A stretch of 64,000 nt of DNA. It comes from Hirudinaria manillensis. Taxonomy: Eukaryota; Annelida; Clitellata; Hirudinida; Hirudinidae. The position numbers and the translations under genes were made by a program. The stretch lies in contig CM067527.1 of the NCBI GenBank assembly GCA_034509925.1, forward strand, positions 8,498,001 through 8,562,000, given 5' to 3'. The notes below the pieces were generated by a model. The model saw only the letters and a list, made by a program, of their open reading frames with translations. It was not told the DNA's origin and searched no databases. Within the stretch, counting starts at the first letter, position 1. Every line of letters begins with the position of its first letter. This document shows, in pieces, positions 2,073 to 57,656 of this stretch.

Positions 2073-2248
2073 TGTTGTATCTTGAATTACTTGCTATATA
2101 ATTAAGGACTACTTTGGGGATTGGAGATACTAAGCTATTTTATTACCAAGAATGTGTCAGTGCACTAACCTCAAAAAGATTCTGAATATTATCGTAATAA
2201 ACTTAAGTAATAATAAATTCTTACAATATTATTACATTATCCACAACA
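2073..2248 (-). repeat. 3' LTR of nested element
   Basis: This 176-bp repeat starts TGTTGTATCTTG and ends CCACAACA. It is nearly identical to 3,602-3,777; only a few substitutions are visible. Confidence 0.92.
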
Positions 2249-2256
2249 CCTCCCCC

Positions 2257-3601
2257 TCATATATAATTATAGATCTTGCTTGCGTCGATCACGAGACGCT
2301 TAGGTGGACCGCGATGGCGTGTGGATCTTTTTACTGGTTTTGGCATTGCGTCTTCTTGGGAGTGTTCCTCTACCATCGACTTGCCTCTGTCGAATGGACA
2401 ACACCATTCCCCCTGTCTTGCTGTCTTTTCAATTGGTCCTTCCTTATTATCAGCATGCCTCTTCCTTCTTGACACGGACTTCCCTCTGTTTCTCCTCCCA
2501 TCATCGTATTTGTCGGATCCGCATCTGTCATGGTTTCTTGATCTCGATCCACTCCTGTATCGTCTGTGACAACCTCTTGACCCTGATCCTCTACCATCAC
2601 TCGGAGAAGGTGAGAGAGATAGAGTACATGAATGGCACTTCCTTCGTTTGTCCCCATTTTTACTGATTGAATCGCCCTGTTCATGGACTGAGTAAGATCT
2701 CCTTGGAACTCCACTCATCCACTCACTGCCTACTAATACAACACTGCCATCTACGTTGCCCCGTTCTTGGCCAGTGTGATTACTGCAGCAACCCTCTGCT
2801 TCATCCTCCTCCTGAGGCAATGGGTTCCGGACTTCTTTGCTAGGGAAGTCTCGAGAATCCCCAAATGCTGTCCTATCTTCAACCACAACTGGATCAGCAT
2901 CGACTGTCTTCCCTGGCTCATCCTGGAGCTCATTCACTCTCTCAACAGGATCAACATTAATCCTTTCCTCTTCCTCCTTCCACGCATCGCAGTGGACAAG
3001 AGTAGTTACCACCAAGGTCTCTGTGCTGACCTTGCACATCATGGCTTCTTCTTGGGTCTCCCCCACTACATCAGCTAGAGCATCCATATTCCCTTCTTCC
3101 TCCTTCCACACATCGCAGTGGACAGGGGAAGTTGCCAGCAAGGTCTCTGCGATGACCTTGCACATTATGGCTACTTCTTGGGCCTCGCCCACTATAACAA
3201 TTGGAAAATCCTTACTCCCTTCTTCCTCCTTCCACGTATCGCAGTGGACAGGAGTAGGTGCAGCAGTGTCTGTGCTGACCTTTTCCATCTTGGGTTCAAC
3301 TTGGGCCTCGCCCAACAAGCGGAGTATTCCCACTCCCTACCTCCTCCCTCCACGCATCGCAGTGGACAGGGATAGGTGCAATCACGGTATCTGCGCTGAG
3401 CATCTTGATTATTGTCAGCCACCGTTCTTGATCTCTTTGCTCCATTCTCTGTTCTCTTTCTTCGCGCTTTTGTTTCTCTCTCTGTTCTCTTTCTTCGCGC
3501 TCTTGTTTCAATCTCTGCTCTCTTTCTTCCTGGTAGGACAGGAACATCATGAACATCTCTGCTACCGATAGTTCTTGAGCGTTAGTCATCCTCGTCGCCA
3601 A
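2257..3601 (-). pseudogene. ORF of nested LTR element: charged coil, four ~40-aa repeats, RS-rich tract
   Basis: Two overlapping frames, 3,601-3,296 and 3,333-2,257, are one ancestral ORF broken by a frameshift near 3,310. The start MATRMTNAQ resembles the start of the gypsy derivative at 18,825 (MATRMATED). An EREQR-rich coiled coil follows. Next come four repeats of about 40 residues, each opening with VHCDxWxEE and followed by a VGEAQ/MxKVSTET block. Then come an Arg/Ser-rich section ([14 protein letters not shown]) and a tail, [20 protein letters not shown], resembling the gypsy Pol C-terminus. No catalytic domain is visible. It looks like a Gag start and a Pol end flanking an unfamiliar repeat protein; its function is unknown. 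Confidence 0.75.
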
Positions 3602-3777
3602 TGTTGTATCTTGAATTACTTGCTATATAATTAAGGACTACTTTGGGAATTGGAGATACTAAGCTATTTTATTATAAAGAATGTGTCAGTGCACTAACCT
3701 CAAAAAGATTCTGAATATTATCATAATAAACTTAAGTAATAATAAATTCTTACAATATTATTACATTATCCACAACA
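3602..3777 (-). repeat. 5' LTR of nested element
   Basis: This 176-bp partner of 2,073-2,248 has the same TGTTG...CAACA ends. It is flanked outside by the target duplication ATGCT. Confidence 0.92.
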
Positions 3778-16916: not shown

Positions 16917-17168
16917 TTAATTTGTAAAAAATAGCAAAATCACTTTTTTGTGCTCCATTTTCGAATCGCAACATCTTTCCAGCGACACCTCATGACCTTG
17001 AAAAGTACTGAAACTTCTCCTCTTTAGATCATTTGTCGGCGATAAAGGCTGATCAGAACCGTTAAACGTTGGTTGGAAACAATGATATTTTGGAGAATTG
17101 TATAAATTTAGAGTAGAATCTTGGTGTAATCTGTCGCCTCCAAAAATGGATGATATAGGAACTCCCAC
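16917..17168 (-). CDS. Glutamate receptor exon 16 (C-tail)
   Basis: 252 nt including stop. It starts [13 protein letters not shown] directly after a TAATTAAG acceptor. It is a Ser/Pro-rich cytoplasmic tail that is not conserved. Confidence 0.82.
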   Translation of the reverse strand: MGVPISSIFGGDRLHQDSTLNLYNSPKYHCFQPTFNGSDQPLSPTNDLKRRSFSTFQGHEVSLERCCDSKMEHKKVILLFFTN

Positions 17169-20100
17169 CTTAATTAAAGCGGATATGAATTCTTTAAGAT
17201 TGAAAGTAATTAAATAATAGAAATTTCAAACCTTTCTGGCAGCCTTCTTTTTTTGCTTATAAATAAATTCGAAGAAACATACGACCAAAGAAAAAAGCAG
17301 ACCGCTGACTAAAATATAAAATATTCCCGCAACGTGACTTAAGGTTAAAGCTCGTTGGGCTGATCCACTTGCCTGCATTAAAAATGAATTAAACTTTGAT
17401 GGCAAATTTTCTCATAAAAGCAACTATTTATAGTTAGTTACCAAAAAATAAACAAAGTAATTAGCCACTGTTACAATTACTGTATCAAAGTAACTCGTTA
17501 CATTTACGTTCAAGTAAAATTCAGTAGGCGTCTTTTTATTGAAGATTCTCTAAAAATCGATAAAGGGGAAAGTAAAGTAATACCTTAAAATCCATTAACC
17601 CCACATCCTGGAGGTTGAAAAAAAACCTTATGCTACATATCAAGGAGACATGACACTTAAAATATGTTTGACATTAAGGGAAATATTTGATATTTTCATA
17701 GAATTAGATGCGATAATGTGTTATATGCTCAAGTTATGGAATTACATAAAAAATAAAATTAAAATATGATTAAAATCAAACCTTATTTAAAAAAATTATA
17801 ACAAAGTTATGTTACAGAGTTACTGTTATTTATGTTATAGTGATTAGGTCGTGTTTTATTTTGAGCAAGAATAAATATAGCCTACATTTACATTGTAGTT
17901 ACATTTATTTATCCTCAAAATCCAAAGTTATCTATAGCAAAGTCCAGCGTTTGTCAGCTACTGTCTCCGTCGTCTCTGCAAAAATCGCACAAAAAATTGT
18001 CCTAAATAGTTCTGACGTTCTTTTCGATTATCACCACATCTAATCAAAGTTTCCTGATCCTCTGAGAAACCACAACAATAAGTGCATGATAATCGTCATC
18101 GTCTTTTGATTTCTGATTATTACGTGGCTATTTCGACCGTGGTTGACGTTGATCAAAAATTGGTTTTTTCATTTTCAATTTCGGATGTTTTGCATGGCTT
18201 TAATCTATCTCCATTTTGGTCGATAGGTGTTTTCTCAATCCCCGAAAGTTTCGTTAGCATTTTTGATTTAAGCTTCCTAGAATGATGAATTAGTTTTAGA
18301 CTTTAATTTTAGAAGCGTCCTGTAGATTCTTTTTTATCCATTTCTTTGCAAATCATTAAAACAGAATATTACTAAAGTGCTTCAAGGTCAAAAAACCTAG
18401 CATAGATAAGATATCATTTAAAACTATGTTTAATGGACGAGATAGCAGGCGATTTCTGTAATTCTTTGGAACTTTTTCTTGAATACTGCCGCAATTTTGA
18501 ACGTGTCAAATTTGTCAGAAAAGTTAGGATCAGATGCGAAAATAGTCTAATGAATAAGTTAAGTTGCGAGGTTGTGGTATAAGAGAAGAAAGATCTGAAG
18601 GATAACCGGATGACCGGACTCAACCTAGCCCTTGATAAGCCCTTCCAGGTAGCGGAAGTAACCTTTCAGATCGCTTCGAAAAACCATAGTGGATGTTCTA
18701 AATCCCGTAATGGAACGATGGTGAGCATGGGTGATGGGTTTTTTCTTTTTGTTGTGGAATTATATGTATCTGTGGTTTGTTTAGATCTTGATATTCTGGA
18801 GTCATAACATATTTGGCGACGAGGATGGCTACTGAGGATAAATTTTTGACCATGATGACGATGTTCATGGAAGAAGATGAACGTCGCGAAGAAGAGACTC
18901 CCCATCACGAGGAAGAAACACGCCGCCGTGAGGAAGATCTCCGCCGAGACGAGGAGTACCGTCGAAGGGAAGAGGCATTGTTGCAAATGCTCCAGTCCCT
19001 GAAACCTCAGTGTAAAGAAGCCATAGAGACAGAAAGAAAATCAGATCTACTCCCGGAGCTCATGAGACAGATAACGCAGTTTAGTTATGATCCTGAGTCT
19101 GGGACGCCCTTTTCCAAGATTTGAAGCAGTCCTAGGAAATCACGCAATGCAGCTGTCGGATGCAGACAAGACAGGCGCACTCGTGTCGAAGCAGAGAAAC
19201 TCCTAGGGAGACCCTTGAGAACTCCCCTGAGTGACCTCCAACTCAAAAGACCAATAAAACATCTCCCAAGAGCTGATCGGGAGATGGAAGACAGGAAACT
19301 TGTCCATCGGCGAATGAGAGAGTTCGTCGAGGGGAACGCAGTCTTCGTAAGAGACTACAGCGACCCAAGTCACCCGAAGTGGATACAGGGATGGATCAAG
19401 CGGAGACTGGGACGTCAAGTGTATCTAGTGGAGGCTAGCGGCAAAATGCTCCATCGCCATGCGAACCGGCTCAGGAAGCGTGCGCAGGATGATTCACTGA
19501 AGGTGATGTGTGAAGCATTTGACTTGCCATTCCTGCCACTAAGTGGGACATCCCAGGCAACCGCAGGAAACACACACACACACCGGAACCACAGGAAATC
19601 CCAGAGTGCGAAGTGGAGCATGTCATTCCGCCAGTACAACCTCGAACACCAAAGAAAAGATCTACAAGGAACCGCCGACTTCCGAGAAGGCTGGAGATGG
19701 ATCCCCAGAGGAAGAAATACTTAATCGTTTAGGGGGGGAGGTGTTGTGGGATTATATGTATCTTTGGTTTGGGTACCGCGGGCGATGAGGCACGCTCGTT
19801 TTCCGTTGTAATTTCGCTCGTGTCCGTATCGTACTATGTCGTGTTGTGGTGTTTCTAATAAAGCGTTTAGATCTTGATATTCTGGAGTCATAACACTTTT
19901 AAATAATACATCCATGGTCACAATTATTATCTGAATATCGCAAAAGACAAATAATTCCATCGATTCTTACACAATCTATAAATTTTTATTATTGTTGCTC
20001 CTACAGTTCTCTACAGTCCATATCAACACTTATAAAATACTGTTGTAACCCGGGGTCTTGAGGAATTAATTAACGTAAGGATATCTTTATTGGATTTAAC

Positions 20101-23100
20101 TAATGGCAAATACGGCTGGACGATTTGGTCGATTGCTTGTCCTGATCGGAACCGCTTAATGACTTGAATCGCTAGTTACGACTTCGAAATAAAAGATACT
20201 GAATATTAACTAAACTTAATTAATTAATTATTTAATTAATTAATTAATGTCAGGGATCCAACATTGCCCCCTCCTTAAATCTGTTCGTCCCGAACAGGCT
20301 GTTCTGTTTCTCCGTGATATTTTGCTAATCGATTGCTGTGGACCACTTTCATTCTAGTCCTTGCTGACTTCTGTATGCGGTATACCACGTCGTTTATTTT
20401 CTTTATGATTCGGTATGGTCCTTCCCAATCTTTTTGTAACTTTGGCGACTTCCCTTTTTTTCGTTGGGGGTTGTATAGCCAGACTAGTTCACTTTCTTTA
20501 AAGCTTATATCATTGGCTTGCCTATCGTATCTCGCTTTGGCTTGATCGCTATTAACACTAATATTTTTCCGGGCAACCTGATGTGTGTCGGCCAGTGTAT
20601 TTCTTAGGCTTGAAACGTAGTCACATGCCGACTTAGGTTCCTCTGCTCTTCCGAACATCATATCGGCAGGAAGACGAATCTCCCTCCCGAATGTCATTTT
20701 CGATGGACTGATTCCTGTCGTTTTATGCACGGCTGTCCGGTAGGCCATAAGGAAAAGTGGCAGGTATCTGTCCCAGTCATCTTGCTGTTCACTTACCATT
20801 TTTGACAAATACTGTTCCATGGTCCTGTTAAATCTCTCGACCATACCGTCCGATTGCGGATGTAATGCAGTGGTTCTTGTCTTATGGATTCCAAGGTTTC
20901 CGCATAGCTCTTGAAATATTTTCGACTCGAAATTCCTTCCTTGGTCCGAATGTAACTCTAATGGCACCCCGAATCGACTAATCCAATTATTTACGAGAGC
21001 ATCAGCTACATTTTCCGCCTCCTGATTTGGCAGTGCAAACGCTTCAGTCCATTTGGTGAAGTAATCGCTGATCACTAATATGTACCGATTTCCCTTCTTT
21101 GATGCAGGGAATGGTCCGGCAATGTCCAAAGCTATTCTTTCAAAAGGTACTCCCACATTATAAGGTTGCATTAGTCCTTTAGTCTTCTTTTGAGGACCTT
21201 TACTGGTTGCGCAATTATTGCAATTTCTACACCACTCTTCAACGTCTTGTTTGTAGTGCAACCAGTAAAACCTCTCCCTCACCTTCCTGATGGTTTTATT
21301 CACTCCTAGGTGTCCACCTGAGGTTCCGTTATGGAATTCTTGTAACACCTCAGAGACGCAAGATCTCGGAAGTACTATTTGAAGGTGATAGTCGGTGCCA
21401 TCCTCTGTTTCCCACTTCCTATGTAGGAGTCCATTACTAATTCTCAAGGAATCCCACTGTGCCCAATAGGACTTAGTAACTTCTCCGTGCTCCGCTATCT
21501 GTTGCCAATCTGGTTTCACCCCGGCCTCCATCCACTGTAGTATGGGTGCAAGTGCTTCGTCTCTTAATTGTAGATCTCGTAACCCGCTTTCTGTCCAGGG
21601 TTCGGGAGCCGTGATACGAATTTGTCGACATTCTTCGGTCTCCTGCTTTTTCTCTGCGTTGTTGCAGTGTCTGCAGTTAATTTGACAAGGACGTCGTGAT
21701 AGCGCATCGGCGTTGTTGTGTATTTGACCTCTCCTGTGTTCAATATTAAACTGAAAACCCTGTAGTCTTTCAATCCACCTCGCCATTTGACCTTCTGGGT
21801 TTTTAAAGTTTAACAGCCACCTCAAAGAGGCGTGATCCGTTCTTAGCAAAAACGGCTGGCCCAAAAGATATTTCTGGAAGTGTTTCATGGATTCTACTGC
21901 TGCTAGTAATTCTCTCCTGGTCACGCAATAGTTTCTTTCCGCTTTAGACAGTGAACGGCTATAAAATGCTAGAACTTTTTCTTCATTTTCAACCTGCTGG
22001 GAAAGAACTGCCCCGATTCCACAGTTACTGGCATCTGTATCGAGGATAAAAGGTAATCCGGGGATAGGATATGCCAGGATCGGTGCCGTTGTCATAGCTT
22101 CTTTCAGATTATCAAATGCTTTCTCACAGCTGTCGTTCCAGATAAATGGCTTGCCTTTTACAGTAAGCTCATGAAGGCTTTTTGCGATGTTTGAAAAGTT
22201 GGCAATAAATCGTCTGTAATAGGTACAAAGTCCTAAGAAGCTTTGAAGTTCTTGGATATTTTTGGGTACAGGCCAATTTTTTACTACCTCGACTTTATCT
22301 GGATCTGTACTAACACCTTCAGAAGACACGATATGGCCAAGGTATTTGACTTCTTTTTTAAAGAGTGAGCATTTCTTTGGACTCAGTTTCATGCCTGCCT
22401 CTCTAATCCTACTAAATACTTCTCGGAGGTTGACTAGATGTTCTCCAAATGTTTTTCCGACAACAATTATGTCATCCAAATATACTAGGCATATTTTCCA
22501 ATTGAGTCCCCTTAGTATGTGTTCCATTAATCTTTCAAACGTCGCGGGGGCATTGCATAGCCCGAACGGCATGACAGTGAATTGCCATAATCCTTCACCT
22601 GTCGAGAAGGCCGTTTTTTCTTTATCGTCAGGATGTAACTCCACTTGCCAGTAACCACTTTTGAGATCTAATGTGGAAAAAATTTTTGATCCCGAGAGAG
22701 TGTCTAAGGTATCATCGATTCTAGGTAAGGGGTAGCTGTCCTTAAGTGTCATTTCGTTCAGCTTTCTATAGTCGACACAAAAACGAAGTGATCCGTCTTT
22801 CTTCTTAACGAGTACCACTGGTGAGCTCCAGGGGCTATTTGACGGTTCAATAACCCCTTGGTCTTGCATTTCTTTTATCATTTCCTTGGCGTTTGCTCTT
22901 GTAGCTAACGGAAGTGGACGGGGGTTTTGTCGAATGGGTTTAGCACCGGCCGTATTTATTTGATGTTGCACGAGGTTAGTTCTACCCAAAGGGCTGTCTT
23001 GTTCAGCCATTATATCCTGAAATTCGCTAAGCAGCTTTTCCGCTTGTTGATAATCTTCTTTTTGTAGGGTTTTGTTTAAATCTTTCAGGAGATTGTCCAT

Positions 23101-26100
23101 CAATGGTTTAGACATGGTATCCCTTTTTATATGCTTATTTCCACTTCCATCTAATGTTAATATGCGTTCTAGGTTCCTGCAAAGTGCGATAGGTGTTCCT
23201 GCTTTGATCTGTTGTTCTTGGTCAGATAGATTCATTACCCTCAGTGGAACTCTGCCGGTGTTTAGCTTTACTAGTGCTCGTCCTATTAGTAGTCCTTGGC
23301 CAATGCCCGATTGATCTTCGACTGCTCCTATACCAAATTTTGTGTGGTCGCCCTCTAGCCCGCCCCAGATTAAACTTTCCGACTGTGCTGGGATGGTCTC
23401 GTCCTGCAATATTTTTACAAATGTGTCTTTAATTTCTGTACCCCCGTAATTTAAAGGAATCTCCATCGTTCCTTGTTGAAGGGTGCCGCCCTTCATGTCA
23501 ATGGAAATTCCATAGCGTCGCATGAAATCCAATCCCAGTATACATTCATCTGTTATATTGGCTATCATAAATTCCTGTTCGAATGACTTACCTCCTAAAT
23601 CTACTGTAATAGTTGTGGTTCCTTGAACTGGCACTAATTCTCCGGTGGCTGTTTTTAGCTTGTAGTTGTTGGTCGTTACTTTACTGTTTCCTGCCAACTT
23701 TGGTTGGACAATAGATGTAGATGCCCCTGTGTCTATTACAAGATTATATTCTTTCCCTCCAATTTTCCCTTTAACCTCTAGTGATGATCCTTTTCCTAAT
23801 GCTGTAACGTGAAAGATGAGTGGGGCATTTCGAGTTTGCTGAAACGATTTTTGCCCCTTGAAATTAGTAGCTTCAGGTTTTTCTGATTTAGAGGTCTCTC
23901 TCCAGTACTGCTGGTTTTTGGAGATGGTCGTTCTACATTCTCGGGCTAAATGGCCAGGCTTGCTACACCTGAAGCACCTTGGTCTTCTATCTACCACCTG
24001 AAATCTTAAGTTTCTTTGGGGCTTGCTGAGGTCATTGACTTGTCGGACTATTTTTTTAATAATTTCTCTGTCTTTGTCATTATCTTTATCTTTATCCTTG
24101 TCTTTGTCTTCCTGAGCTTCAATTTTCTTTACATTCAAGCTTTTTTGGATTGAGGCTCTTGCCGCTTCAATGGAGATTGCAAACGCCAATGCTTCATGGC
24201 TGGCCTTTTTTCCATGAATTTTTAGTGCCATTTTGGTTTCCGCATCCCTTATCCCATCAACGAAGGCGTCAGTTACAATGTTTTCAATGAAATCTGTTGA
24301 CTGTCCTGGGTGGGCTAAGTATGCGAGTCTTCTGACGTCAGCTTCTAATTCTTGGAGTGATTCGCCCTGTTTTTGCGTACGGTTTTTTAATTCGTTTTTA
24401 TGTACTTCCAGCATGTGGCCATTCCCAAATCTTCTTTCCATTGCTTCTACTATTTCTGAATAGGCTTTACAGTGCAGCATTGTTTGCAAAAGCTCGGCTG
24501 CCCTTCCTCGCAGTACCATTATCAGCTCTGTTGCTTTTTCCTCTTCGGTCCACTTGTTACGTTCAGCGGCAATTTCAAACTGATGTCTGAACACTGCCCA
24601 TGGCCCTTGTCCGTCGAATAGTGGTGGTCTCGTCGTTTTCTCTCTTCTATATGTCTCTATTTTTGATTCATTGTACTTCTTAAACTTCTCTATTTCCCTC
24701 TTCTGCTCCTCTTTTAGTGCATCTAATTCTGCTTTAACCTTTCTAAGGTCGGCCATTTCCTTGGATGATCTGAGGTTGGTTAAGTCAGTTTTTACCTCTT
24801 CCCGCAGAACATCTACGGATGTCTGGCATTTGACTACGTCTGTCTTTACCTGCTCCCGTAGAACATCCATGGCTACCTGGAAGTTGGCTATATCGGATTT
24901 CATATCCGACCGCAAAGTATCAATGTCACATTTCATATCCGACCGCAAAGTATTCATGCCGCAAATCATATCTGACCGCAGAGCATTATTGTCGGCTTTC
25001 ATAGATGCCTGAAGTTCTTCCCATTTTTTTCCTTTTTGATCCCCAAATTCATACTCCGACGGGTCATGATTATTTTCCAAAAGCCATTCCTCGAGTCGTC
25101 TTTGTAGTTCGGCTTTTAGGCCAGTTGCATCCTGGCCTCGATTCCTTAGTTCTTGTCTCAAATCGGGAACGCGCAACTCGTCCAGTATCTTAGGTCCCAT
25201 TTCTGTCGTTAAACTCGCTGTCTTTACCTTTAGTGAATCGATATCCTTTTACGACGTTAAATCCCACTCCTGACACCAATGTTGTAACCCGGGGTCTTGA
25301 GGAATTAATTAACGTAAGGATATCTTTATTGGATTTAACTAATGGCAAATACGGCTGGACGATTTGGTCGATTGCTTGTCCTGATCGGAACCGCTTAATG
25401 ACTTGAATCGCTAGTTACGACTTCGAAATAAAAGATACTGAATATTAACTAAACTTAATTAATTAATTATTTAATTAATTAATTAATGTCAGGGATCCAA
25501 CAATACAGTTCCGATTCCAAAGGAAGTCTTAATCAATAAATGTTTAATGGATAATAGGGAATATTAGTCAGCATAAAAAGGTAATGGCTTAAAGGAATTG
25601 CGGTTACCTTATCGCCATCGGCAGAACACTCTCCTTTATCAAACCACCATTTCTTGTGTAATTTCGTCAACTCTCCTGATTCTCTAAGTTGCAAAACAGC
25701 GAGTCCAACGGGTTCCCTAAATTGTTTTAGACTTATTATATCTAATAAAGTATTTTCGAATGTTGAAAACCCAACTTGAGGTAATGACCAACTCGAGTAG
25801 CCACTCCATAACCCTTTGAATCGAGATCTGGCCCAACCTTCATTGTATCACATGGCTTCTTTTGATTGTAGTAGTCATTCATGGTTGATTCTAATAAAAA
25901 TGCATATTTGCCTTTAGAAGATCTCACTCGTTCAACTCCTTCCTCTGTGGATTTCACATAAACATGTTTATTGGCTTCCATAAATTTCCACATAGCCTCG
26001 AATGCCTCAACTTTTGACATCTGTGCAAATTAGTTTTCCACTGAATATGACATTTATAATACAGAATGAAATCAGTTGAATAATTATGTAATAAAAGATC

Positions 26101-53100: not shown

Positions 53101-54871
53101 GGAGAAAGACAGACACTCCGTCACGTACTGTCTGGGTGCAGTTACGCCCTGGCGCATGGCCGCTTTACATGGCGTCACAATCAAGTTCTGCTGGCCGTAA
53201 CCGAAGCCATCAAGAGAGCCTGCTCCAGCGCCAACGCAAGAGAATCGGTTCCACAGAGAGCGACATACTTCCTACGAGAGGGCGCCTCCCAGTTCGCAAA
53301 GAACAGATGTGCGTCAAAAAGGAGCCACCTCCTCGAGATTGCCAACGACTGGGAGATAGCGGCAGATATCGCAGGGTTGAGGCACTATCCCCAGGTGCTA
53401 GCAGAAAGTGGGAAAAGGCCGGTCATCAACGAAGGCAGATGCACTCGTCCTGGCAGAGTTGACAGTGCTCTGGGAAGATAGAATGGATCTTAGCAACAGT
53501 CTGAAGGAGGAAAAATACCTGGACCTAACGATGGACCTCAGACAGAAGGGGTACAGGGTTTGGTTCTTCGCCATAGAGCTGGGAGCAAGGGGACTCATCG
53601 GAAAGTCTACCTACACGTTCCTGCGAGAGGTCGGCCTAACCAGTAGCGCCAGGTCAAAATCCATGGCGAAGATGTCCAGGGCTGCCGAGGCGGCGCCGCA
53701 GTGGATATGGTCAAAGAGGGACGCCAGGTAGTCTCCCACGGAGAACCGGGGACAATCCATCGACCAGTTCTCAAAACTACCTCTCTGCTCGATCCGCAAC
53801 TCGAGGCGAGTGCAAAGGCAGCTGAAGGCTTTTATAGGCAACGACCGAGTCGAAAGGTCACGCGGCTGTACCAGTGGCCAAATCCATCCAATCAAAAGCA
53901 CACAAAGCTCCGCCAATTGGAAGACTCCGGGCATAGCCCCCTGAAAGGTCGGCACTAATCACAGCTATTTAAGTTGCGTACCTGAGCTCCGCTGGCAGTT
54001 CGATGTCGGTTTCGGGCGCGAGAGTTGTAGTGAGCGAGGGTTGCATGGTATGGCGATGGTCTTGATTGAGCGTCGTATTGTGGGAAGAAGAGAGAGAGAG
54101 GGGGGAAGGCAGGTGTGCAAAAGATTCGACCGACAAGAACACCCGCCTGATCAGCGGGTGTGGCCCGGCCCCGGAGAACGTCAGAGGTATAATGGGCCGA
54201 AACGTTTGCAGATGGGGCAACCTCTCTGAGGATTCTTGTCGGCGCTCGCACAGAGTATCAATTTCTTTCTACATTAACTCCACGATATTCGAGGGATTAC
54301 TATATGAAAATTTGTTTATAAGCGAATTTTATGAGTTGCATTTGCATACATTTAATGTATCAGTGATTTATGAGTTACATAATGATTTTAATCTTTAACA
54401 TACTGTTCCAGTAATGAGATAATGATATCCTGTACGGTGCATGCCCACGTTTTTTATCTAAAATCAATAAATTTTAATGGAAACTGCTTTAAATTTAAAC
54501 ATATTGCAGTATTTGTCTTTCACAATTCATAGCTTTATATGGATTTTATAAGCTTTATAAGCAGTATAATGTTTTATTAAATATTTTAATAAAATGTTTT
54601 TTTGAAAAATAGTTTATCAAATAATAAAACTCTAACTTGCTGCAAAATATGGGTTAGAACAGCATTTGAACTAAAATCAAGAACGAAGTTTTTACGAAAA
54701 TCATGGTAATTGCTATCAATGTGACGGAGTAAAGAATAACTATCACATGAATCTTTTAGCCTGACTCCTTCAATTTTAAAATTGTCGTGCTTTCTACGTT
54801 TATGCAGCTCAGAGTATATTTGTTGAAATCTCTGAAGACCTGCGACAAAATACTTAACAATCACATTCTTC

Positions 54872-54913
<42 letters not shown>

Positions 54914-57656
54914 ACAATTCAAAATGATGCAAATAACGTATAATAATAAAAACATTTTGACAAATATTTGTGACTGGTGCGTATAAAAAGGTTGCAAACA
55001 TTCCCAAATTTCAGCAAAATTCTTTAAGTATTGAACTGATCAGAGCCCAATTTTGAATTAATATGTAAATTATAATTGTATACACTTGTGCCAAATTTCC
55101 TTTCAATTGATCAAAATAAGCTTGCAAATTAATCAAAGCGTCCTATTTTGGTTAGGGCTAGGGTTATACTTATATACATATATACATATACATACATGTA
55201 TGTATATAAGAAGAATCTCTTGGAATAAGAGAATCTATAAACATCATTAACTTACTAAAATTTGGTTGTTTAAAAATATGTGACACGTTATTAATCCTAT
55301 ATTATACAATAGTAATAATAATATACAATAGTAAAAATATTTCTTGAATGAAGTTTAATTTCTCACTAAGTGCAAGTTAAATTTTTCTGAGATGTTTGTA
55401 ACTTAAGTAAAGACCAAAATTTGTCATTTCAGTGAATTCGTGAGCACCGTTTATTCAATCCAGATATCTCTATCAAAAGTATGTAACACTACAGCTTATG
55501 CAATATTTCCGAATCTCAACACTGGAGAAGTTATTCAAAAATCAAGGGGCATTTGTAATCTTTTTACACGCATTTTAAGTGGTATCTAGATATACAGTCT
55601 GGCATAAATTTGGCCCAGATACGTGTATTTTGACGACAGCATTAGAAATAGCGAGATTGTATCAATCAATTTTTCGTAGGATGAAACACACTAGATTTAT
55701 ATAATTAAAAAATTATTGAAATTAGATGAATATTTTATGAGAATTAAACATTGAAAACATTACCAAATATTGCGTGATTCAGCCAGGAATATTATGGAGC
55801 ATAAATTTTCAAATTTATTAGAATAAACCTTTACTCTACATCTTCCATGAAAGTCAATATTAAATTTTACCCCTTTTATTAATTAATTCCTGAATTTATC
55901 TTTTAATGATTCCAGGAGAGATTTTAGGGTTTTCTCACTTATCTCTTTCCAGCCATTACCCAGCTCTTGAACACTGAAATATCAATGCTATTAGAATATA
56001 TTTTTCCATTATGCAACTACTACACTTTGTTGATGTTGTTAAAGCTGGGAGCCATTTGAGAATTGATGAATGTTGAAGAACATTGTCATGCTGGAATAAG
56101 ACTGTTTCGTTTCTAAATTTGTCGCGTAATGAATATTCCTTTATCGTTTAAATACGTTCTGCTTTCCCTCTAAGAAGACAACGTTCGAAAGAACCGCGAG
56201 GGGAAATAGCAGCCGAAACCATCATTGGGGCACTTCCGGCATTTCTTTACATTATTTTGGATTCCTGATATCATGCCAATAATATTTAAAGTCAACTGGA
56301 CCATCTCATCTAACTTTTTGTTTTCATCAGAAAAACATAAAGGAGTCTCAGTACGACATCTATTTTGATTAGTTTAGTCAGAACTTCTTGTGAGAATCTA
56401 TCGGAAGTGGTTTGTGCTGACTCATAACAAACTCCAGAAAGCCACTCCCATGAATACATAAAAGCATATAAGGTTATATCCAAATTTATGTTCGAATGTT
56501 TAAAAAAATATTTAAAATTTTATTGAATGTCAAGATCAGCATCTTATGGATGCTGCAAATGCATTTTTTATTGCAAATGCGTGAAAATTAAACAGTAATT
56601 TTTAAAATTGAAATAGAAATTCTGTGATTCTTGAACCTGGGCCAAATTTATGAAGAGACTCTAGATTGTTCAGTCGAACGAAATAAAACTAATACTTGTG
56701 ACTAAGCGACATCCAGACATACCTTGTTCGGAATCATATATGTATATGGCTTTGGTCCAATCATAGTACGACATCATGTCAATAAGAGCTTTGTGTTGTG
56801 AGGGCGTCATAAATATAGAAAAATTGGAGGGTGGGGAGAAACTCAGAGGGGGCTGATCGTGACTAATAAATGGAAGATGAAAAGTTTTTCCGAATGATTC
56901 CGTAACATCTAAGGTTTGTGGATCAGCAACACCGTATAGTAAAAATATACCTTTAGGCATTGTTGAGCAAACTGTAAAGTATAAAAATTGTGGGGAACTG
57001 CTAAGAATAGCAAAGAATATTAACAAAGTTTTGTAAAAAAAATAAGTTTGAAGTAAAATATGAAAATACAAAAATGTAACGAGTGAGAAACTTAATAAAT
57101 TAAATAAGTAAAAATCACCACCTTAGAAGTAAATTAATAGTAAAAGTTAATGTAAACGAACAATTTTCATTAAAAAATTTAAGTTATATACAGAATTTGA
57201 TCATAATCTATCTTTTTATTAATGCTATTCTTACTTGCTTTAGTGACTTCAAAGCTGTCGCTGGTGTCGACGACTTTTTCATATTGATCAATATTGAAGA
57301 ATACAGAAGAAGCTTCATCGCTTTTGTTGTTAAATTTTTCAATCTCAAATCTTAATGCAGATTGAGCTTGTTGGACAACCAATCTTGAGGACGTCACTAG
57401 ATCTTGTACCACGTCATAAGCCGATATACTCGCCGTTTGCTGAGGAGGTTTTGGATTGTCATAAAGAGTACCTTAGAAAAACAATTCCCACGAAAATCTC
57501 ATAATAAAGATTTATATTTATTAACTACACGCTTTTCTTTTACGAACCTATAGGAATTCGTTTAGCAAAACCATCGGCAATCTTAAAATGTAAAATCAAC
57601 GGTACCATAAAACACGGAATAGACTTCAAAAACAAAAATGTTTGTCTAAAATTCAT
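16917..57656 (-). CDS. AMPA-type-like ionotropic glutamate receptor subunit, 16 exons, 982 aa
   Basis: Exons in transcript order: 57656-57548, 57471-57235, 56971-56723, 54839-54637, 54457-54404, 49746-49588, 41947-41759, 38976-38869, 33319-33212, 27585-27373, 27308-26935, 26762-26564, 26020-25776, 25716-25608, 17372-17232, 17168-16917. The sum is 2,949 nt, all introns GT-AG, phases consistent throughout. Residues 1-28 are a signal peptide; about 33-430 the amino-terminal domain ([37 protein letters not shown]). The ligand site keeps Tyr476, Pro551, Thr553, Arg558, Ser728, Thr729 and Glu778. M1 is about 598-616, pore loop 647-662 (FMQQG, Gln660 at the Q/R site), M3 678-700, M4 866-888. [17 protein letters not shown] and [10 protein letters not shown] favour AMPA over kainate type. 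The gate motif reads TYTANLAAF instead of SYTANLAAF. The cytoplasmic tail is about 90 residues. It should form a Ca-permeable tetrameric excitatory channel at the plasma membrane. Confidence 0.93.
17232..17372 (-). CDS. Glutamate receptor exon 15 (M4)
   Basis: 141 nt, phase 0-0, 8.2 kb from exon 14. [20 protein letters not shown] is the M4 segment, followed by basic [10 protein letters not shown]. Confidence 0.95.
17590..18325. repeat. Dispersed repeat, copy 2 (partner at 7,040-7,640)
   Basis: Collinear with copy 1 over several short blocks, in the same orientation, with larger indels. It lies in the last large intron of the glutamate receptor gene. Confidence 0.65.
18326..18749. other. Intronic gap before a gypsy derivative
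   Basis: No element recognised. Short open frames on both strands have no family features. Confidence 0.4.
18825..19124 (+). pseudogene. Gag N-terminal coil of gypsy derivative
   Basis: About 100 codons: [19 protein letters not shown], then a long charged coil ([20 protein letters not shown]). The start is like the nested element ORF at 3,601. It ends at the internal deletion junction. Confidence 0.75.
19205..19724 (+). pseudogene. Integrase C-terminal region of gypsy derivative
   Basis: Reads [19 protein letters not shown] then [18 protein letters not shown] and [19 protein letters not shown], the chromo-like tail of gypsy integrase. It is nearly identical to 61,682-61,167 (minus), with small differences near the end (a frameshift after the CACACA run). 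Confidence 0.85.
20041..20263 (-). repeat. 3' LTR of intact gypsy element
   Basis: 223 bp, TGTTGTAACC...GGATCCAACA as read on plus. Contains a run of AATTAATTA palindromes. Identical by eye to 25,280-25,502. Confidence 0.96.
20275..25200 (-). CDS. Gypsy Gag-Pol polyprotein, 1,641 aa, intact
   Basis: Residues 10-42 are a SAP-type motif ([20 protein letters not shown]), unusual in Gag. Residues 60-180 form a heptad coiled coil. Residues 193-345 are the retrotransposon Gag core ([20 protein letters not shown]). The zinc knuckle [14 protein letters not shown] is at 409-422. Protease DTGA is at 490-493. RT has catalytic D845 and YLDD at 907-910. RNase H starts at ILDTDAS near 1052. Integrase has the zinc ligands H1290, H1297, C1327 and C1330 and the catalytic D1359, D1419 and E1455. 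The single frame without a frameshift between gag and pol implies one polyprotein. It makes virus-like particles and inserts cDNA. The start at 25,200 follows the primer site by about 60 bp. Confidence 0.96.
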   Translation of the reverse strand: MGPKILDELRVPDLRQELRNRGQDATGLKAELQRRLEEWLLENNHDPSEYEFGDQKGKKWEELQASMKADNNALRSDMICGMNTLRSDMKCDIDTLRSDMKSDIANFQVAMDVLREQVKTDVVKCQTSVDVLREEVKTDLTNLRSSKEMADLRKVKAELDALKEEQKREIEKFKKYNESKIETYRREKTTRPPLFDGQGPWAVFRHQFEIAAERNKWTEEEKATELIMVLRGRAAELLQTMLHCKAYSEIVEAMERRFGNGHMLEVHKNELKNRTQKQGESLQELEADVRRLAYLAHPGQSTDFIENIVTDAFVDGIRDAETKMALKIHGKKASHEALAFAISIEAARASIQKSLNVKKIEAQEDKDKDKDKDNDKDREIIKKIVRQVNDLSKPQRNLRFQVVDRRPRCFRCSKPGHLARECRTTISKNQQYWRETSKSEKPEATNFKGQKSFQQTRNAPLIFHVTALGKGSSLEVKGKIGGKEYNLVIDTGASTSIVQPKLAGNSKVTTNNYKLKTATGELVPVQGTTTITVDLGGKSFEQEFMIANITDECILGLDFMRRYGISIDMKGGTLQQGTMEIPLNYGGTEIKDTFVKILQDETIPAQSESLIWGGLEGDHTKFGIGAVEDQSGIGQGLLIGRALVKLNTGRVPLRVMNLSDQEQQIKAGTPIALCRNLERILTLDGSGNKHIKRDTMSKPLMDNLLKDLNKTLQKEDYQQAEKLLSEFQDIMAEQDSPLGRTNLVQHQINTAGAKPIRQNPRPLPLATRANAKEMIKEMQDQGVIEPSNSPWSSPVVLVKKKDGSLRFCVDYRKLNEMTLKDSYPLPRIDDTLDTLSGSKIFSTLDLKSGYWQVELHPDDKEKTAFSTGEGLWQFTVMPFGLCNAPATFERLMEHILRGLNWKICLVYLDDIIVVGKTFGEHLVNLREVFSRIREAGMKLSPKKCSLFKKEVKYLGHIVSSEGVSTDPDKVEVVKNWPVPKNIQELQSFLGLCTYYRRFIANFSNIAKSLHELTVKGKPFIWNDSCEKAFDNLKEAMTTAPILAYPIPGLPFILDTDASNCGIGAVLSQQVENEEKVLAFYSRSLSKAERNYCVTRRELLAAVESMKHFQKYLLGQPFLLRTDHASLRWLLNFKNPEGQMARWIERLQGFQFNIEHRRGQIHNNADALSRRPCQINCRHCNNAEKKQETEECRQIRITAPEPWTESGLRDLQLRDEALAPILQWMEAGVKPDWQQIAEHGEVTKSYWAQWDSLRISNGLLHRKWETEDGTDYHLQIVLPRSCVSEVLQEFHNGTSGGHLGVNKTIRKVRERFYWLHYKQDVEEWCRNCNNCATSKGPQKKTKGLMQPYNVGVPFERIALDIAGPFPASKKGNRYILVISDYFTKWTEAFALPNQEAENVADALVNNWISRFGVPLELHSDQGRNFESKIFQELCGNLGIHKTRTTALHPQSDGMVERFNRTMEQYLSKMVSEQQDDWDRYLPLFLMAYRTAVHKTTGISPSKMTFGREIRLPADMMFGRAEEPKSACDYVSSLRNTLADTHQVARKNISVNSDQAKARYDRQANDISFKESELVWLYNPQRKKGKSPKLQKDWEGPYRIIKKINDVVYRIQKSARTRMKVVHSNRLAKYHGETEQPVRDEQI
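25280..25502 (-). repeat. 5' LTR of intact gypsy element
   Basis: 223 bp, partner of 20,041-20,263. It should carry the promoter; no clear TATA call was made because the whole LTR is AT-rich. Confidence 0.96.
25608..25716 (-). CDS. Glutamate receptor exon 14
   Basis: 109 nt. [19 protein letters not shown] then [16 protein letters not shown], the end of S2. This is the region of flip/flop exons in vertebrates; only one version is seen here. Confidence 0.95.
25776..26020 (-). CDS. Glutamate receptor exon 13
   Basis: 245 nt, phase 0 in and 2 out. [32 protein letters not shown] with the ligand Glu, [15 protein letters not shown]. The donor GTTGGG inside CTCAA/GTTGGG gives exact length agreement with AMPA receptors; the intron is only 59 bp. 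Confidence 0.93.
26021..26563 (-). other. Glutamate receptor intron 12
   Basis: 543 bp between exons 12 and 13. It is AT-rich except for a block near 26,330-26,520. No element recognised. Confidence 0.5.
26564..26762 (-). CDS. Glutamate receptor exon 12 (M3, S2 start)
   Basis: 199 nt. [20 protein letters not shown] (M3 with gate motif), [29 protein letters not shown] with the Ser-Thr glutamate contacts. Confidence 0.97.
26935..27308 (-). CDS. Glutamate receptor exon 11 (S1 end, M1, pore)
   Basis: 374 nt, phase 0 in and 2 out. [20 protein letters not shown] with the ligand Arg, M1 [17 protein letters not shown], then [19 protein letters not shown], the pore loop with Gln at the Q/R site. Confidence 0.97.
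27373..27585 (-). CDS. Glutamate receptor exon 10
   Basis: 213 nt, phase 0-0. SAPYLMIKM with the glutamate-contacting Tyr, [19 protein letters not shown] and [14 protein letters not shown]. Confidence 0.95.
28906..29759 (-). mobile_element. pogo/Tigger-like DNA transposon fragment inside copia
   Basis: The ends carry GGCATAGTAACGAG-type terminal sequence in inverted orientation (left TGGTGGCATAGTAACGAGGG; right GTGGCATAGTAATGAG). The same terminal sequence occurs at 60,869. Minus-strand translation contains a CENP-B-type helix-turn-helix ([20 protein letters not shown], then [15 protein letters not shown] at 29,326-29,132) preceded by frameshifted [14 protein letters not shown]. The DDE catalytic part is absent, so the copy is a short derivative. 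Confidence 0.8.
29132..29326 (-). pseudogene. CENP-B-like HTH of pogo-type transposase
   Basis: 64 codons; the pattern of LPVSG-x6-KA-x-(K/E)L followed by [12 protein letters not shown] is typical of HTH_Tnp_Tc5 in pogo/Tigger transposases. The neighbouring frame (29,474-29,262) holds the upstream part, so a frameshift is present. Confidence 0.8.
30421..32915 (-). other. Glutamate receptor intron 9, unassigned part
   Basis: About 2.5 kb with only short open frames. None has splice context or a recognisable domain. AT-rich throughout. Confidence 0.4.
32916..33071. repeat. Perfect tandem duplication, 2 x 78 bp
   Basis: Units 32,916-32,993 and 32,994-33,071 are identical (start AACCCGTGGTGC, end AAATTCCCAGC). 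Lack of divergence indicates a recent duplication. Confidence 0.95.
33212..33319 (-). CDS. Glutamate receptor exon 9
   Basis: 108 nt, phase 0-0. [13 protein letters not shown] then [16 protein letters not shown], the linker into ligand-binding lobe S1. Donor GTAAGT. Confidence 0.9.
33655..33900 (+). pseudogene. hAT transposase C-terminal relic
   Basis: Plus-strand translation gives [20 protein letters not shown] followed by [16 protein letters not shown], the hAT dimerisation motif (L-x-I-P-A-T-S-x-x-S-E-R-x-F-S). Only the C-terminus is left. It lies in intron 8 of the glutamate receptor gene. Confidence 0.8.
34383..34965. repeat. 275-bp direct duplication flanking a telomere-type tract
   Basis: Units 34,383-34,657 and 34,691-34,965 are the same length and differ at about one base (GAAGCAGTTA versus GAAGTAGTTA). 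The space between is filled by the GGGTTA repeat. Confidence 0.95.
34657..34690 (+). repeat. Interstitial (TTAGGG)n telomere-type tract
   Basis: Five full GGGTTA units plus a partial one with no mismatch, lying exactly between the two 275-bp repeats. Confidence 0.95.
35165..35455 (-). pseudogene. Open frame in DNA transposon copy 1, unrecognised
   Basis: 96 codons, Ser/Asp-rich, including [20 protein letters not shown]. It lies downstream of the conserved block on the minus strand, so it may be the C-terminal part of the transposon protein. No domain recognised. Confidence 0.4.
36480..36780. repeat. Diverged tandem repeat units, related copy at 58,545-58,705
   Basis: Two units here share the order AACGAAATTTAT / GATTCA / GTCA / AGACATAAGTTTGC / AAATT. 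A third unit with GATTCACGTATTGTCATC and AAATAAAAGCATG is at 58.55-58.7 kb. An old non-coding repeat family. Confidence 0.6.
37265..38320 (+). pseudogene. R2-like non-LTR retrotransposon, copy B (fragment)
   Basis: Frames broken by many indels follow the reverse transcriptase order: [20 protein letters not shown] near 37,380, VVWLDQANA with the first catalytic Asp near 37,715, [12 protein letters not shown], then [20 protein letters not shown] at 37,893-37,953. After a large deletion it ends in the same structured 3' segment as copy A (38,195-38,310). It lies in intron 8 of the glutamate receptor gene. Confidence 0.82.
38330..38868 (-). other. Intron sequence left of exon 8
   Basis: Contains a 38,365-38,475 block rich in AGTTAC/GTTAC motifs that resembles 17,437-17,510, possibly a short interspersed repeat. 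Otherwise AT-rich and unassigned. Confidence 0.4.
38869..38976 (-). CDS. Glutamate receptor exon 8
   Basis: 108 nt, phase 0-0. [20 protein letters not shown] then [14 protein letters not shown], the LxGxIxFxxxGxR block at the end of the amino-terminal domain. Confidence 0.92.
39103..39213. repeat. Near-perfect inverted repeat, 42-bp arms, 27-bp loop
   Basis: Arm 39,103-39,144 and arm 39,172-39,213 are complementary with one mismatch. The loop repeats the GACTGATATTTAGTAT portion of the arm. Could be the end of a palindromic element or a replication-slippage product. Confidence 0.95.
39214..40045 (-). other. Intron 7, unassigned
   Basis: A short plus-strand open frame at 39,799-40,014 is not recognised. 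The rest is AT-rich. Confidence 0.4.
40046..40434 (-). pseudogene. Unrecognised frame, possibly part of a retroelement relic
   Basis: A 118-codon minus-strand frame (40,402-40,046) with a basic stretch ([15 protein letters not shown]). It lies downstream of a gypsy gag relic on the same strand, so it may be more of that element, but no Pol motif is visible. Confidence 0.35.
40840..41450 (-). pseudogene. Gypsy gag relic
   Basis: Minus-strand translation has [16 protein letters not shown] then [38 protein letters not shown] and [12 protein letters not shown]. This aligns with the Gag core of the intact element ([37 protein letters not shown]). Frameshifts and a stop replace a conserved Arg. 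It lies in intron 7. Confidence 0.78.
41759..41947 (-). CDS. Glutamate receptor exon 7
   Basis: 189 nt, phase 0-0. [17 protein letters not shown] (family: TYDAVxVxxxA) to [18 protein letters not shown] (family: PWxxGxEVxxALKQ). Not marked by any long open frame, because the exon is short. Confidence 0.9.
41948..42759 (-). other. Intron 6, right-hand part unassigned
   Basis: A minus-strand 90-codon frame (42,667-42,395) and a plus-strand 64-codon frame (42,204-42,398) occur; neither is recognised. Confidence 0.4.
42760..43050 (+). pseudogene. Tc1-like transposase fragment
   Basis: Reads [19 protein letters not shown] then [12 protein letters not shown], corresponding to the DGP-x-G/N-x-x-YWRD and GGGSVMVWGAxSxxG blocks of Tc1 transposases. 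The same sequence type occurs on the minus strand near 56,200 (AAACCATCATTGGGGC). Confidence 0.68.
43409..43747 (-). pseudogene. copia RNase H fused to integrase tail by deletion
   Basis: The frame begins in the integrase C-terminal area ([10 protein letters not shown]) and jumps to [12 protein letters not shown], just before RNase H, so nearly all of reverse transcriptase is missing. RNase H residues follow: [20 protein letters not shown] and [24 protein letters not shown]-rich short homology (ISRK/RKRV) may have guided the deletion. Confidence 0.85.
43891..45015 (-). pseudogene. copia protease, pre-integrase and integrase region, copy 2
   Basis: The frame 45,015-44,269 (248 codons) has [12 protein letters not shown] (protease), [17 protein letters not shown] and [10 protein letters not shown] (zinc ligands) and SADVCGPF (first Asp). 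The frame 44,160-43,891 has [11 protein letters not shown] and [11 protein letters not shown] (Glu). Single-base indels break it near 44,160 and 44,390. Confidence 0.88.
45047..45666 (-). mobile_element. Truncated nested LTR element, same insertion site as copy 1
   Basis: A 176-bp LTR (45,047-45,222) joins copia sequence at the identical base to 2,073 in copy 1. The polypurine tract and RS-rich ORF end follow (frame 45,449-45,231). At about 45,666 the interior fuses to copia gag, so the other LTR and part of gag were deleted. Confidence 0.9.
46373..47602 (+). other. Intron 6, unassigned block with a 146-codon frame
   Basis: The open frame 46,373-46,813 encodes a Lys/Asn-rich protein I do not recognise; it begins at the copia edge, so its start is doubtful. 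A GC palindrome, GGGGACCCC, lies near 46,705. Minus-strand frame 47,395-47,150 is also unrecognised. Confidence 0.35.
47603..48442 (-). mobile_element. Unclassified inverted-repeat DNA transposon, copy 2
   Basis: Inverted ends: GCGTAATTG near 47,606 and CAATTACGC near 48,432, then GGCGGAGCTTAAGCAAACTG, CGCTGTGATTGGCT (47,630-47,663) against its inverse AGCCAATCATAGC to GCTGCGCCTCC (48,370-48,405). No clear target duplication. About 840 bp with one long minus-strand ORF. Confidence 0.75.
47801..48190 (-). CDS. ORF of DNA transposon copy 2, unknown protein (129 aa)
   Basis: 129 codons, [20 protein letters not shown] to [26 protein letters not shown] segment is shared with the older copy at 35.6-35.9 kb. 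It could be the C-terminal part of a longer transposase; no catalytic residues are recognised. Conservation between the two copies at the protein level suggests it was once translated. Confidence 0.5.
   Translation of the reverse strand: MTIKDIQKCLPTMFEYEFGKGGNSNESMDSIEVMTQIIIPRQHSVSLRTSESIVLSRLKAYNTLALLDYIVVIQDKLKVKYYIGRFVSGAFGRFTKPYMVYEKIRNKDVEIFSVNAESVQWTGSDIFCV
48445..49587 (-). other. Intron 6, part next to exon 6
   Basis: AT-rich, with only short frames. No element identified. Confidence 0.4.
49588..49746 (-). CDS. Glutamate receptor exon 6
   Basis: 159 nt, phase 0-0. [19 protein letters not shown] then [10 protein letters not shown] and [10 protein letters not shown]. Confidence 0.9.
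49747..50439 (-). other. Intron 5, part next to exon 6
   Basis: AT-rich. Nothing recognised. Confidence 0.4.
50440..51240 (+). pseudogene. Tc1-like transposase relic
   Basis: Plus-strand translation with breaks shows [19 protein letters not shown] (second Asp) near 51,000, [10 protein letters not shown] (Glu replaced by Lys) near 51,095 and [13 protein letters not shown] near 51,165. An upstream piece, [11 protein letters not shown], is near 50,740. Confidence 0.75.
51241..51840 (-). other. Intron 5 gap between a Tc1 relic and an R2-like element
   Basis: A minus-strand 89-codon frame (51,505-51,236) is Ile/Lys-rich and not recognised. Confidence 0.4.
51849..52351 (+). pseudogene. R2-like reverse transcriptase, second half
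   Basis: Two frames (51,849-52,061 and 51,965-52,351), joined across a frameshift near 51,975, have [16 protein letters not shown] and then AFMDDTTL, the xxDD catalytic pair, then [12 protein letters not shown] and [19 protein letters not shown]. The break and the stop at 52,351 make it non-functional. Confidence 0.85.
52352..52944 (+). pseudogene. R2-like thumb/linker region
   Basis: Frames give [40 protein letters not shown] and [20 protein letters not shown]. This linker precedes the CCHC finger in R2-like elements. Frameshift near 52,500. Confidence 0.75.
52990..53731 (+). pseudogene. R2-like CCHC finger and restriction-like endonuclease
   Basis: The frame 52,990-53,481 has [17 protein letters not shown], the CCHC finger. 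The frame 53,408-53,731 has [20 protein letters not shown] then [13 protein letters not shown] and [13 protein letters not shown], fitting the PD-(D/E)XK-like endonuclease of R2/R4/NeSL elements. A one-base shift near 53,430 splits the aspartate-containing region between frames. Confidence 0.82.
54130..54242 (+). ncRNA. Structured RNA segment in R2-like 3' region (candidate)
   Basis: Stem 1: 54,130-54,139 pairs with 54,233-54,242 (CCGACAAGAA/TTCTTGTCGG). Hairpin: CACCCGC-CTGATCA-GCGGGTG, 54,140-54,160. Stem 3: GGCCC 54,162-54,166 with GGGCC 54,194-54,198. Copy B keeps the hairpin with different arms (ATCCGG/CCGGAT, 38,201-38,219), the same CTGATCA loop and the same GGCCC/GGGCC pair. Probably a 3' recognition element for the element's own reverse transcriptase; no ribozyme core was recognised. 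Confidence 0.6.
54404..54457 (-). CDS. Glutamate receptor exon 5 (54-nt microexon)
   Basis: 18 codons, [18 protein letters not shown], between a TTGATTTTAG acceptor and a GTATGT donor, phase 0 on both sides. It supplies the YHY segment that AMPA receptors have between these exons; skipping it would keep the frame. Confidence 0.85.
54637..54839 (-). CDS. Glutamate receptor exon 4
   Basis: 203 nt. [16 protein letters not shown] to [18 protein letters not shown]. Acceptor TTTTGTCGCAG, donor GTTAGA, phase 0. Confidence 0.88.
54840..55889 (-). other. Intron 3 part, with TA microsatellite
   Basis: A TA/ATAT run occupies about 54,874-54,912, close to the exon 4 acceptor side. The GGTTAGGGCTAGGG scrap at 55,150 is telomere-like but degenerate. 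TATACATA repeats follow at 55,165-55,205. Otherwise AT-rich and unassigned. Confidence 0.5.
55890..56640 (-). pseudogene. Tc1-like transposase relic
   Basis: On the minus strand: [15 protein letters not shown]-like, [23 protein letters not shown] and [12 protein letters not shown] (second Asp). The order fits Tc1, with many breaks. It lies in intron 3 of the glutamate receptor gene. Confidence 0.7.
56723..56971 (-). CDS. Glutamate receptor exon 3
   Basis: 249 nt. [13 protein letters not shown] through [18 protein letters not shown], corresponding to the AMPA receptor YKWxKFVYIYD block. Donor GTATGT, phase 1. Confidence 0.9.
57235..57471 (-). CDS. Glutamate receptor exon 2
   Basis: 237 nt. 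Begins [11 protein letters not shown] and includes [14 protein letters not shown], the first helix of the amino-terminal domain. Donor GTAAGA after GCA A, phase 1. Confidence 0.85.
57548..57656 (-). CDS. Glutamate receptor exon 1 (start, signal peptide)
   Basis: 109 nt. ATG at 57,656, then [16 protein letters not shown], a hydrophobic signal, then FAKRIPIG entering the amino-terminal domain. Donor GTTCGT, phase 1. Confidence 0.85.

What the first reader, a model, noticed from the sequence alone, without database searches (positions are those of the whole stretch)
16917..57656. Complete 40.7-kb AMPA-type-like receptor gene recovered from 16 scattered small exons
Most exons are too short or too interrupted to stand out as open frames, yet all 16 join with agreeing phases into 982 codons that cover every receptor domain. 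The introns hold most of the transposons in this window. Seen: splice sites, phases, motifs. Known: AMPA receptor layout. Inferred: one transcript.
Basis: partly seen in the sequence, partly recalled or inferred. Interest (0 to 1): 0.75.

Follow-up and report, generated by a model that had tools for sequence, protein, structure and literature searches.

The report
Leech AMPA-class glutamate receptor gene
This is a real, apparently intact 16-exon gene for a glutamate-gated ion channel of the AMPA class in a leech, with two unusual changes at normally conserved channel positions but otherwise an ordinary member of a well-known family.

Summary
I rebuilt the gene: 16 minus-strand exons, 57656 to 16917, 982 codons plus stop, 15 of 15 introns GT-AG with agreeing phases, full receptor domain order. 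The leech protein Helobdella P0001 aligns without a gap across 11 of 15 junctions. AMPA class is supported: the 60 PDB rows shown (of 391) are AMPA receptors by name or plain 'Glutamate receptor', and a tree separates it from GluK2, GluK5 and GluD2. The animal is a leech, very likely Hirudinaria manillensis, not an arthropod.

Of 122 retrieved proteins only Helobdella P0001 shares this (pore unread in one). Four of nine paralogs with a readable pore encode arginine at the Q/R site. Two papers call leech receptors kainate-like; the tree puts all ten paralog loci it holds with AMPA. Exons 1 and 16 rest on frame and splice sites only; no RNA data. New member of a known kind; modest interest.

The parts
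57548..57656 (-). exon 1 (start codon, hydrophobic leader)
   Evidence: ATG at 57656, donor GT, hydrophobic stretch aa 6-24; no homology support
57235..57471 (-). exon 2 (N-terminal domain start)
   Evidence: AG/GT, phase 1 in; its second half lies in the GluA4 match of the draft; outside the Helobdella alignment
56723..56971 (-). exon 3 (N-terminal domain)
   Evidence: AG/GT, phase 1; GluA4 match; 35 of 83 residues aligned with Helobdella, 18 identical
54637..54839 (-). exon 4 (N-terminal domain)
   Evidence: AG/GT; 68 of 68 residues aligned with Helobdella, 28 identical
54404..54457 (-). exon 5, 18 codons (N-terminal domain)
   Evidence: AG/GTATGT; 12 of 18 identical to Helobdella; score 71 against shuffle maximum 35
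49588..49746 (-). exon 6 (N-terminal domain)
   Evidence: AG/GT; 33 of 50 aligned residues identical; gapless junctions on both sides
41759..41947 (-). exon 7 (N-terminal domain)
   Evidence: AG/GT; 28 of 63 identical; score 146 against shuffle maximum 39
38869..38976 (-). exon 8 (N-terminal domain end)
   Evidence: AG/GT; 24 of 36 identical to Helobdella
33212..33319 (-). exon 9 (linker to ligand-binding domain)
   Evidence: AG/GTAAGT; 14 of 35 aligned residues identical; score 70 against shuffle maximum 39
27373..27585 (-). exon 10 (S1 half of ligand-binding domain)
   Evidence: AG/GT; 42 of 71 identical to Helobdella
26935..27308 (-). exon 11 (S1 end, M1, pore loop FMQQGCT, ligand residues P551 T553 R558)
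   Evidence: AG/GTAAGT; 94 of 116 aligned residues identical to Helobdella
26564..26762 (-). exon 12 (M3 with [10 protein letters not shown]2 start, ligand residues S728 T729)
   Evidence: AG/GTAAGT; 60 of 67 identical to Helobdella
25776..26020 (-). exon 13 (S2, ligand residue E778, C791)
   Evidence: AG/GT; 61 of 81 identical to Helobdella
25608..25716 (-). exon 14 (S2 end; same place as the vertebrate flip/flop cassette, which is recalled)
   Evidence: AG/GT; 26 of 37 identical to Helobdella; no second copy found in the window
17232..17372 (-). exon 15 (M4)
   Evidence: AG/GT; 30 of 46 aligned residues identical to Helobdella
16917..17168 (-). exon 16 (83-residue cytoplasmic tail and stop)
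   Evidence: AG acceptor, open frame to TAA; no homology support
20041..25502 (-). recent LTR retrotransposon inside intron 14, same orientation as the gene, 105 nt after exon 14
   Evidence: two 223-nt LTRs 100% identical, TG...CA ends, ATAC on both sides; gag-pol frame

Best explanation
An intact gene for an AMPA-class ionotropic glutamate receptor subunit in a leech (very likely Hirudinaria manillensis). Shown by sequence: complete domain order, glutamate-binding residues, pore and gate. Inferred: the mRNA is spliced from these exons (2-15 firm, 1 and 16 less so), the subunit assembles into a tetramer, binds L-glutamate in the S1/S2 clamshell and opens a cation pore at synapses. The pore carries Q at the Q/R site but lacks the acidic residue four positions later, so it is predicted to be Ca2+-permeable with weak polyamine block. 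The confidence is for the AMPA-class gene with exons 2-15.
For: 16 exons, 15 of 15 GT-AG, agreeing phases, 982 aa. Pfam ANF_receptor 2.4e-41, Lig_chan-Glu_bd 3e-38, Lig_chan 6.4e-45. The 60 PDB rows shown, of 391 matched, are named GluA1-4, chimeras of these, or plain 'Glutamate receptor'; best GluA4 at 610.6 bits (863-aa draft). Helobdella P0001 64% over 74%, gapless over 11 of 15 junctions. Tree on the M3-S2 region: window + Helobdella 99.8/100; the group of GluA4, rotifers and ten loci of this genome against GluK2, GluK5, GluD2 99.8/100. Ligand residues R558, S728, T729, E778, cysteines C117, C380, C791, C846 and hydrophobic spans at M1, M3, M4. In paralogs the tblastn matches break at or within a few residues of the same places (545, 668, 736, 816, 852).
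Against: No RNA evidence. Exons 1 and 16 have no homology support. Helobdella's own model gives no alignment before residue 164 or after 899. The tree rests on 184 columns and one or two references per class, without lophotrochozoan kainate receptors. The gate motif and the +4 pore site depart from the AMPA norm, so normal gating is not certain; PMC5225553 passages say substitutions in the motif are reported to alter gating and permeability. A recent retrotransposon in sense orientation sits between exons 14 and 15 and could cut some transcripts short.
Confidence: 0.93

Rival explanations
1. It is a kainate-class receptor, as two leech transcriptome papers label leech non-NMDA receptors.
For: Passages of PMC6054404 and PMC11748453 call nine Hirudo and six Sinospelaeobdella receptors kainate-like; the former adds that pharmacology cannot be read from sequence. 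I did not have those sequences.
Against: M3-S2 identity 67% to GluA4 against 50% to GluK2 and 49% to GluK5; the split is supported 99.8/100. The 60 PDB rows shown are AMPA receptors or unspecified, none named kainate. PMC6307864 passages report AMPA expansion in molluscs and annelids.
Confidence: 0.04
2. It is a decaying or silenced copy: the recent LTR element in intron 14 ends transcripts before the M4 exon, so no full subunit is made.
For: Sense element with identical LTRs 105 nt after exon 14.
Against: No stop or frameshift in 982 codons; the coding sequence is well kept against Helobdella; intronic elements are usually spliced out (general knowledge).
Confidence: 0.04
3. The frame-compatible exons 1 and/or 16 are wrong and the true ends lie in other exons (compatible with the main reading).
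For: No homology support for either; an acceptor-like sequence stands 5 nt before the ATG.
Against: A leader-like hydrophobic start and a tail frame to a stop follow in phase.
Confidence: 0.25

Closest known systems
Helobdella robusta protein P0001 (HELRODRAFT_72038), ionotropic glutamate receptor
   Same: Best protein hit of the full-length search, 64% over 74% of the query; shares TYTANLAAF and FMQQGCT; sister in the tree, 99.8/100
   Different: No alignment with its model before residue 164 or after 899 of the window protein
Vertebrate AMPA receptors GluA1-GluA4
   Same: Domain order, ligand residues, Q at the Q/R site, best PDB matches
   Different: Gate S to T and +4 Asp to Thr; one S2-end cassette found, not a flip/flop pair; N-terminal domain weakly similar, 73.6 bits against 525.5 for the rest
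Helobdella P0007 and the C11:2.29 Mb paralog in this genome
   Same: AMPA class by tree for the paralog; P0007 66% identical over the searched region; paralog breaks at the same places
   Different: R at the Q/R site (FMRQGCD) and Asp at +4

Membership tests
ionotropic glutamate receptor | N-terminal domain, S1/S2 ligand-binding domain, M1-pore-M3-M4 | tested here: met
   Pfam order and hydrophobic spans
ionotropic glutamate receptor | SYTANLAAF gate motif | tested here: inconclusive
   8 of 9 residues kept, first S is T; PMC6307864 passage discards sequences with fewer than four
AMPA class | groups with GluA and apart from kainate and delta | tested here: met
   99.8/100 on 184 columns, GluA4 as the only vertebrate AMPA row
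AMPA class | glutamate-binding residues (GluA2 R485, S654, T655, E705; numbering partly recalled) | tested here: met
   R558, S728, T729, E778
AMPA class | Q at the Q/R site with acidic residue at +4 (common, not strictly defining) | tested here: not met
   Q660 present, T664 instead of D/E
AMPA class | AMPA-evoked, fast desensitising current | not testable with these tools
   needs electrophysiology
AMPA class (vertebrate trait, recalled) | alternative flip/flop exons | tested here: not met
   only one cassette; next tblastn match in the window has E 0.25
kainate class | groups with GluK | tested here: not met
delta class | groups with GluD | tested here: not met
   37% identity to GluD2 over 172 columns

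The most novel reading that the evidence does not exclude
Leeches keep a distinct AMPA subtype whose conserved gate (Ser to Thr) and +4 pore (Asp to Thr) changes give a Q-type channel with little polyamine rectification, while sister genes hard-code arginine at the Q/R site in DNA, so that leeches set Ca2+ permeability by gene choice rather than by RNA editing; leech 'kainate-like' receptors are then mostly AMPA class.
Probability: 0.35. Interest if true: 0.5.

Novelty: new member of a known kind. Interest (0 to 1): 0.27.

Why it matters
It shows that a long, transposon-laden animal gene can be read correctly from raw DNA. Biologically, leeches are classic synapse models; the gene and its paralogs suggest that receptors labelled kainate-like there may be AMPA class, and they offer natural variants of two much-studied channel sites (gate Ser, +4 Asp) for expression tests.

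Tried and rejected
Arthropod origin: rejected on the leech best hit and a mitochondrial gene order of annelid type (that the order is annelid-like is recalled, its conservation in Clitellata is from passages). A second flip/flop cassette: searched, not found. A pore-less paralog at C2:2.71 Mb: the gap is a run of N in the sequence given to me, so nothing can be said. The full-length search, with words from the first 500 residues, gave 3 proteins among 4692 candidates; words from residues 540-900 gave 7917 of 7972 scored candidates, 120 listed. Kainate genes in this genome: the GluK2 fragment found the same loci as the window protein (best E-value C8:0.89 Mb, 67%; highest identity 78% at C2:11.87 Mb; both in the AMPA group) plus six weaker loci at 25-49% that I did not classify. 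RNA families: 0 matches. Structure prediction was not run, because a spliced protein is not contiguous in the window. A different Hirudinaria assembly of 157.5 Mb (passages of PMC10087013) does not fit this genome. Paper searches on leech or annelid receptors, the Q/R site and the gate (library of open papers only) listed none that, from listings and the passages I read, reports these leech changes; no paper was read whole.

Full report
1. Observation. Stop-free frames on the minus strand between 57.7 and 16.9 kb already show most receptor pieces. I listed acceptor and donor sites with phase, found the missing exons 5, 7 and 9 by scoring splice-bounded frames in the gaps against GluA template stretches, and read the bases at the borders. 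The result is 16 exons, 2949 nt, 982 residues, 15 of 15 GT-AG introns of 59 to 8235 nt, all phases agreeing.

2. Is it more than chance? Four of the 16 exons were tested with the Helobdella protein as template; scores were 71, 146, 134 and 70, against at most 38 on the opposite strand and at most 39 in 20 shuffles per interval. For exon 8 the highest-scoring frame ran on to 38824; the chosen donor at 38869 is the better site and its join is gapless. Helobdella P0001 covers residues 164-899 and is gapless over 11 of 15 junctions; 14/15 has one gap; three junctions are outside it. Exons 1 and 16 stay unproven, and the donors of exons 1, 4, 6, 13 and 15 are of the weaker GTT kind.

3. What animal. 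The genome has 148,429,096 bases in 23 contigs. Contig C23, 15,581 bases, begins with cox1 and carries cox2, cox3, tRNA-Gln and a nad6-like frame in that order within its first 4 kb (the names of the frames are mine, from their translations). PMC4866719 passages describe a gene order conserved across leeches and Clitellata; that this order is that one is recalled. Passages of PMC10671345 describe a Hirudinaria manillensis assembly of 22 scaffolds, 148.59 Mb, plus a mitochondrial genome of 15,581 bp: 22 + 1 contigs and the same mitochondrial length. The totals differ by about 0.18 Mb and I could not compare letters, so the name is very likely but not proven. The paper mentions a deposited gene prediction, so this gene has probably been predicted before; I did not see it.

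4. What it is. Pfam gives the complete layout. The best PDB matches are GluA4 and other GluA (with an 863-aa draft that lacked exons 5, 7 and 9). A maximum-likelihood tree of the M3-S2 region, 18 rows and 184 columns (two of twelve fetched paralog loci dropped for too few readable columns), puts the window gene with Helobdella (99.8/100) and all ten other leech loci with GluA4 and the rotifer rows, apart from GluK2, GluK5 and GluD2 (99.8/100). Inside that group much of the branching is weak (down to 0/49), and GluA4 is the only vertebrate AMPA row.

5. How it works. The residues for binding glutamate are kept: R558, S728, T729, E778, at GluA positions named in passages of PMC6307864 and, for 654, from recall. 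The Q/R site codon is CAG (Q660). PMC6307864 passages tie Q586 and an acidic residue at 590 to Ca2+ permeability and polyamine block, and PMC12226733 passages report more linear currents when the +4 Asp is replaced by Ala in a placozoan receptor. Here +4 is Thr (T664). The prediction of weak rectification is inference from those passages.

6. Unusual positions. Among 122 proteins retrieved (most listed rows are vertebrate), 121 read SYTANLAAF and one, Helobdella P0001, reads TYTANLAAF; 117 read FMQQGCD, two FMHQGVD, one FMRQGCD, one FMQQGCT (P0001), and one could not be read. So the gate and +4 changes are shared by two leeches and were not seen elsewhere in this set. PMC5225553 passages describe the motif as conserved in the receptors they compare and its substitutions as altering gating and permeability. 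Of twelve paralog loci fetched, the gate was read in ten, all SYTANLA, and the pore in nine: four have R at the Q/R site (FMRRGCE twice, FMRRGCD, FMRQGCD) and five have Q, one of these with Gly at +4 (FMQQGVG). Helobdella P0007 also has FMRQGCD. In this genome arginine is thus written in the DNA; for Helobdella I saw only the deposited protein.

7. Literature. [quoted passage not shown] PMC6307864 passages report AMPA expansion in molluscs and annelids. My tree agrees with the latter for the loci it holds; I did not have the Hirudo sequences. The GluK2 fragment found the same loci (best E-value at 67% identity, highest identity 78%, both at loci in the AMPA group) and six weaker loci at 25-49% that were not classified. 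Some stretches of the genome read N, so absence of kainate genes is not shown.

8. Transposons. Intron 14 (8235 nt) holds a full-length Ty3-like element (type by my reading of its domains), 20041-25502, in the same orientation, with two identical 223-nt LTRs and ATAC on both sides. A 1001-base piece of its interior has 40 scored matches at 99-100% identity in the genome, itself included, out of 168 candidates of the first look. Other elements lie in introns and outside the gene. I did not measure whether introns are enriched.

9. Verdict. A correct and careful reading by the first stage; an ordinary gene of a known class in a group of animals where the class is known, with a small, testable novelty in pore and gate.

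Noticed in passing
window 20041-25502: Very recent Ty3-like LTR element with a 1657-aa gag-pol frame that has a SAP domain near its start; a piece of it has 40 scored matches at 99-100% identity in the genome, itself included.
   Followed up: partly
window 2073-3777: Compact LTR-like element: 176-nt direct repeats (4 of 176 differ, TG...CA ends, ATGCT on both sides) around a single 359-aa frame with no Pfam match; 51 matches at 80-100% identity in the genome. Looks like an element without its own pol, beside copia-like integrase sequence at 689-1429.
   Followed up: partly
window 10223-11838: A 372-aa frame whose SAP-domain start is 66% identical over 50 residues to the start of the gag of the intron 14 element, between direct repeats of at least 126 nt (7 of 126 differ).
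   Followed up: partly
G000 C11:2.29 Mb and C12:3.02 Mb: The M3 exon and the following S2 exon of one AMPA paralog occur with the same protein sequence at two places on different contigs; the rest of the second copy was not seen in the 10 kb fetched: recent duplication or assembly effect.
   Followed up: partly
G000 C11:8.88 Mb and C11:8.93 Mb: Two nearly identical AMPA-class genes in opposite orientation about 40 kb apart.
   Followed up: no
G000 C9:3026446-3027786: A copy of mitochondrial cox1 on another contig that scores the same as the mitochondrial one: a recent nuclear insertion or an assembly error.
   Followed up: no
window 34382-34965 and 32916-33071: Exact local duplications in introns: 276 nt at 308-nt spacing and a 78-nt unit twice head to tail.
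   Followed up: no
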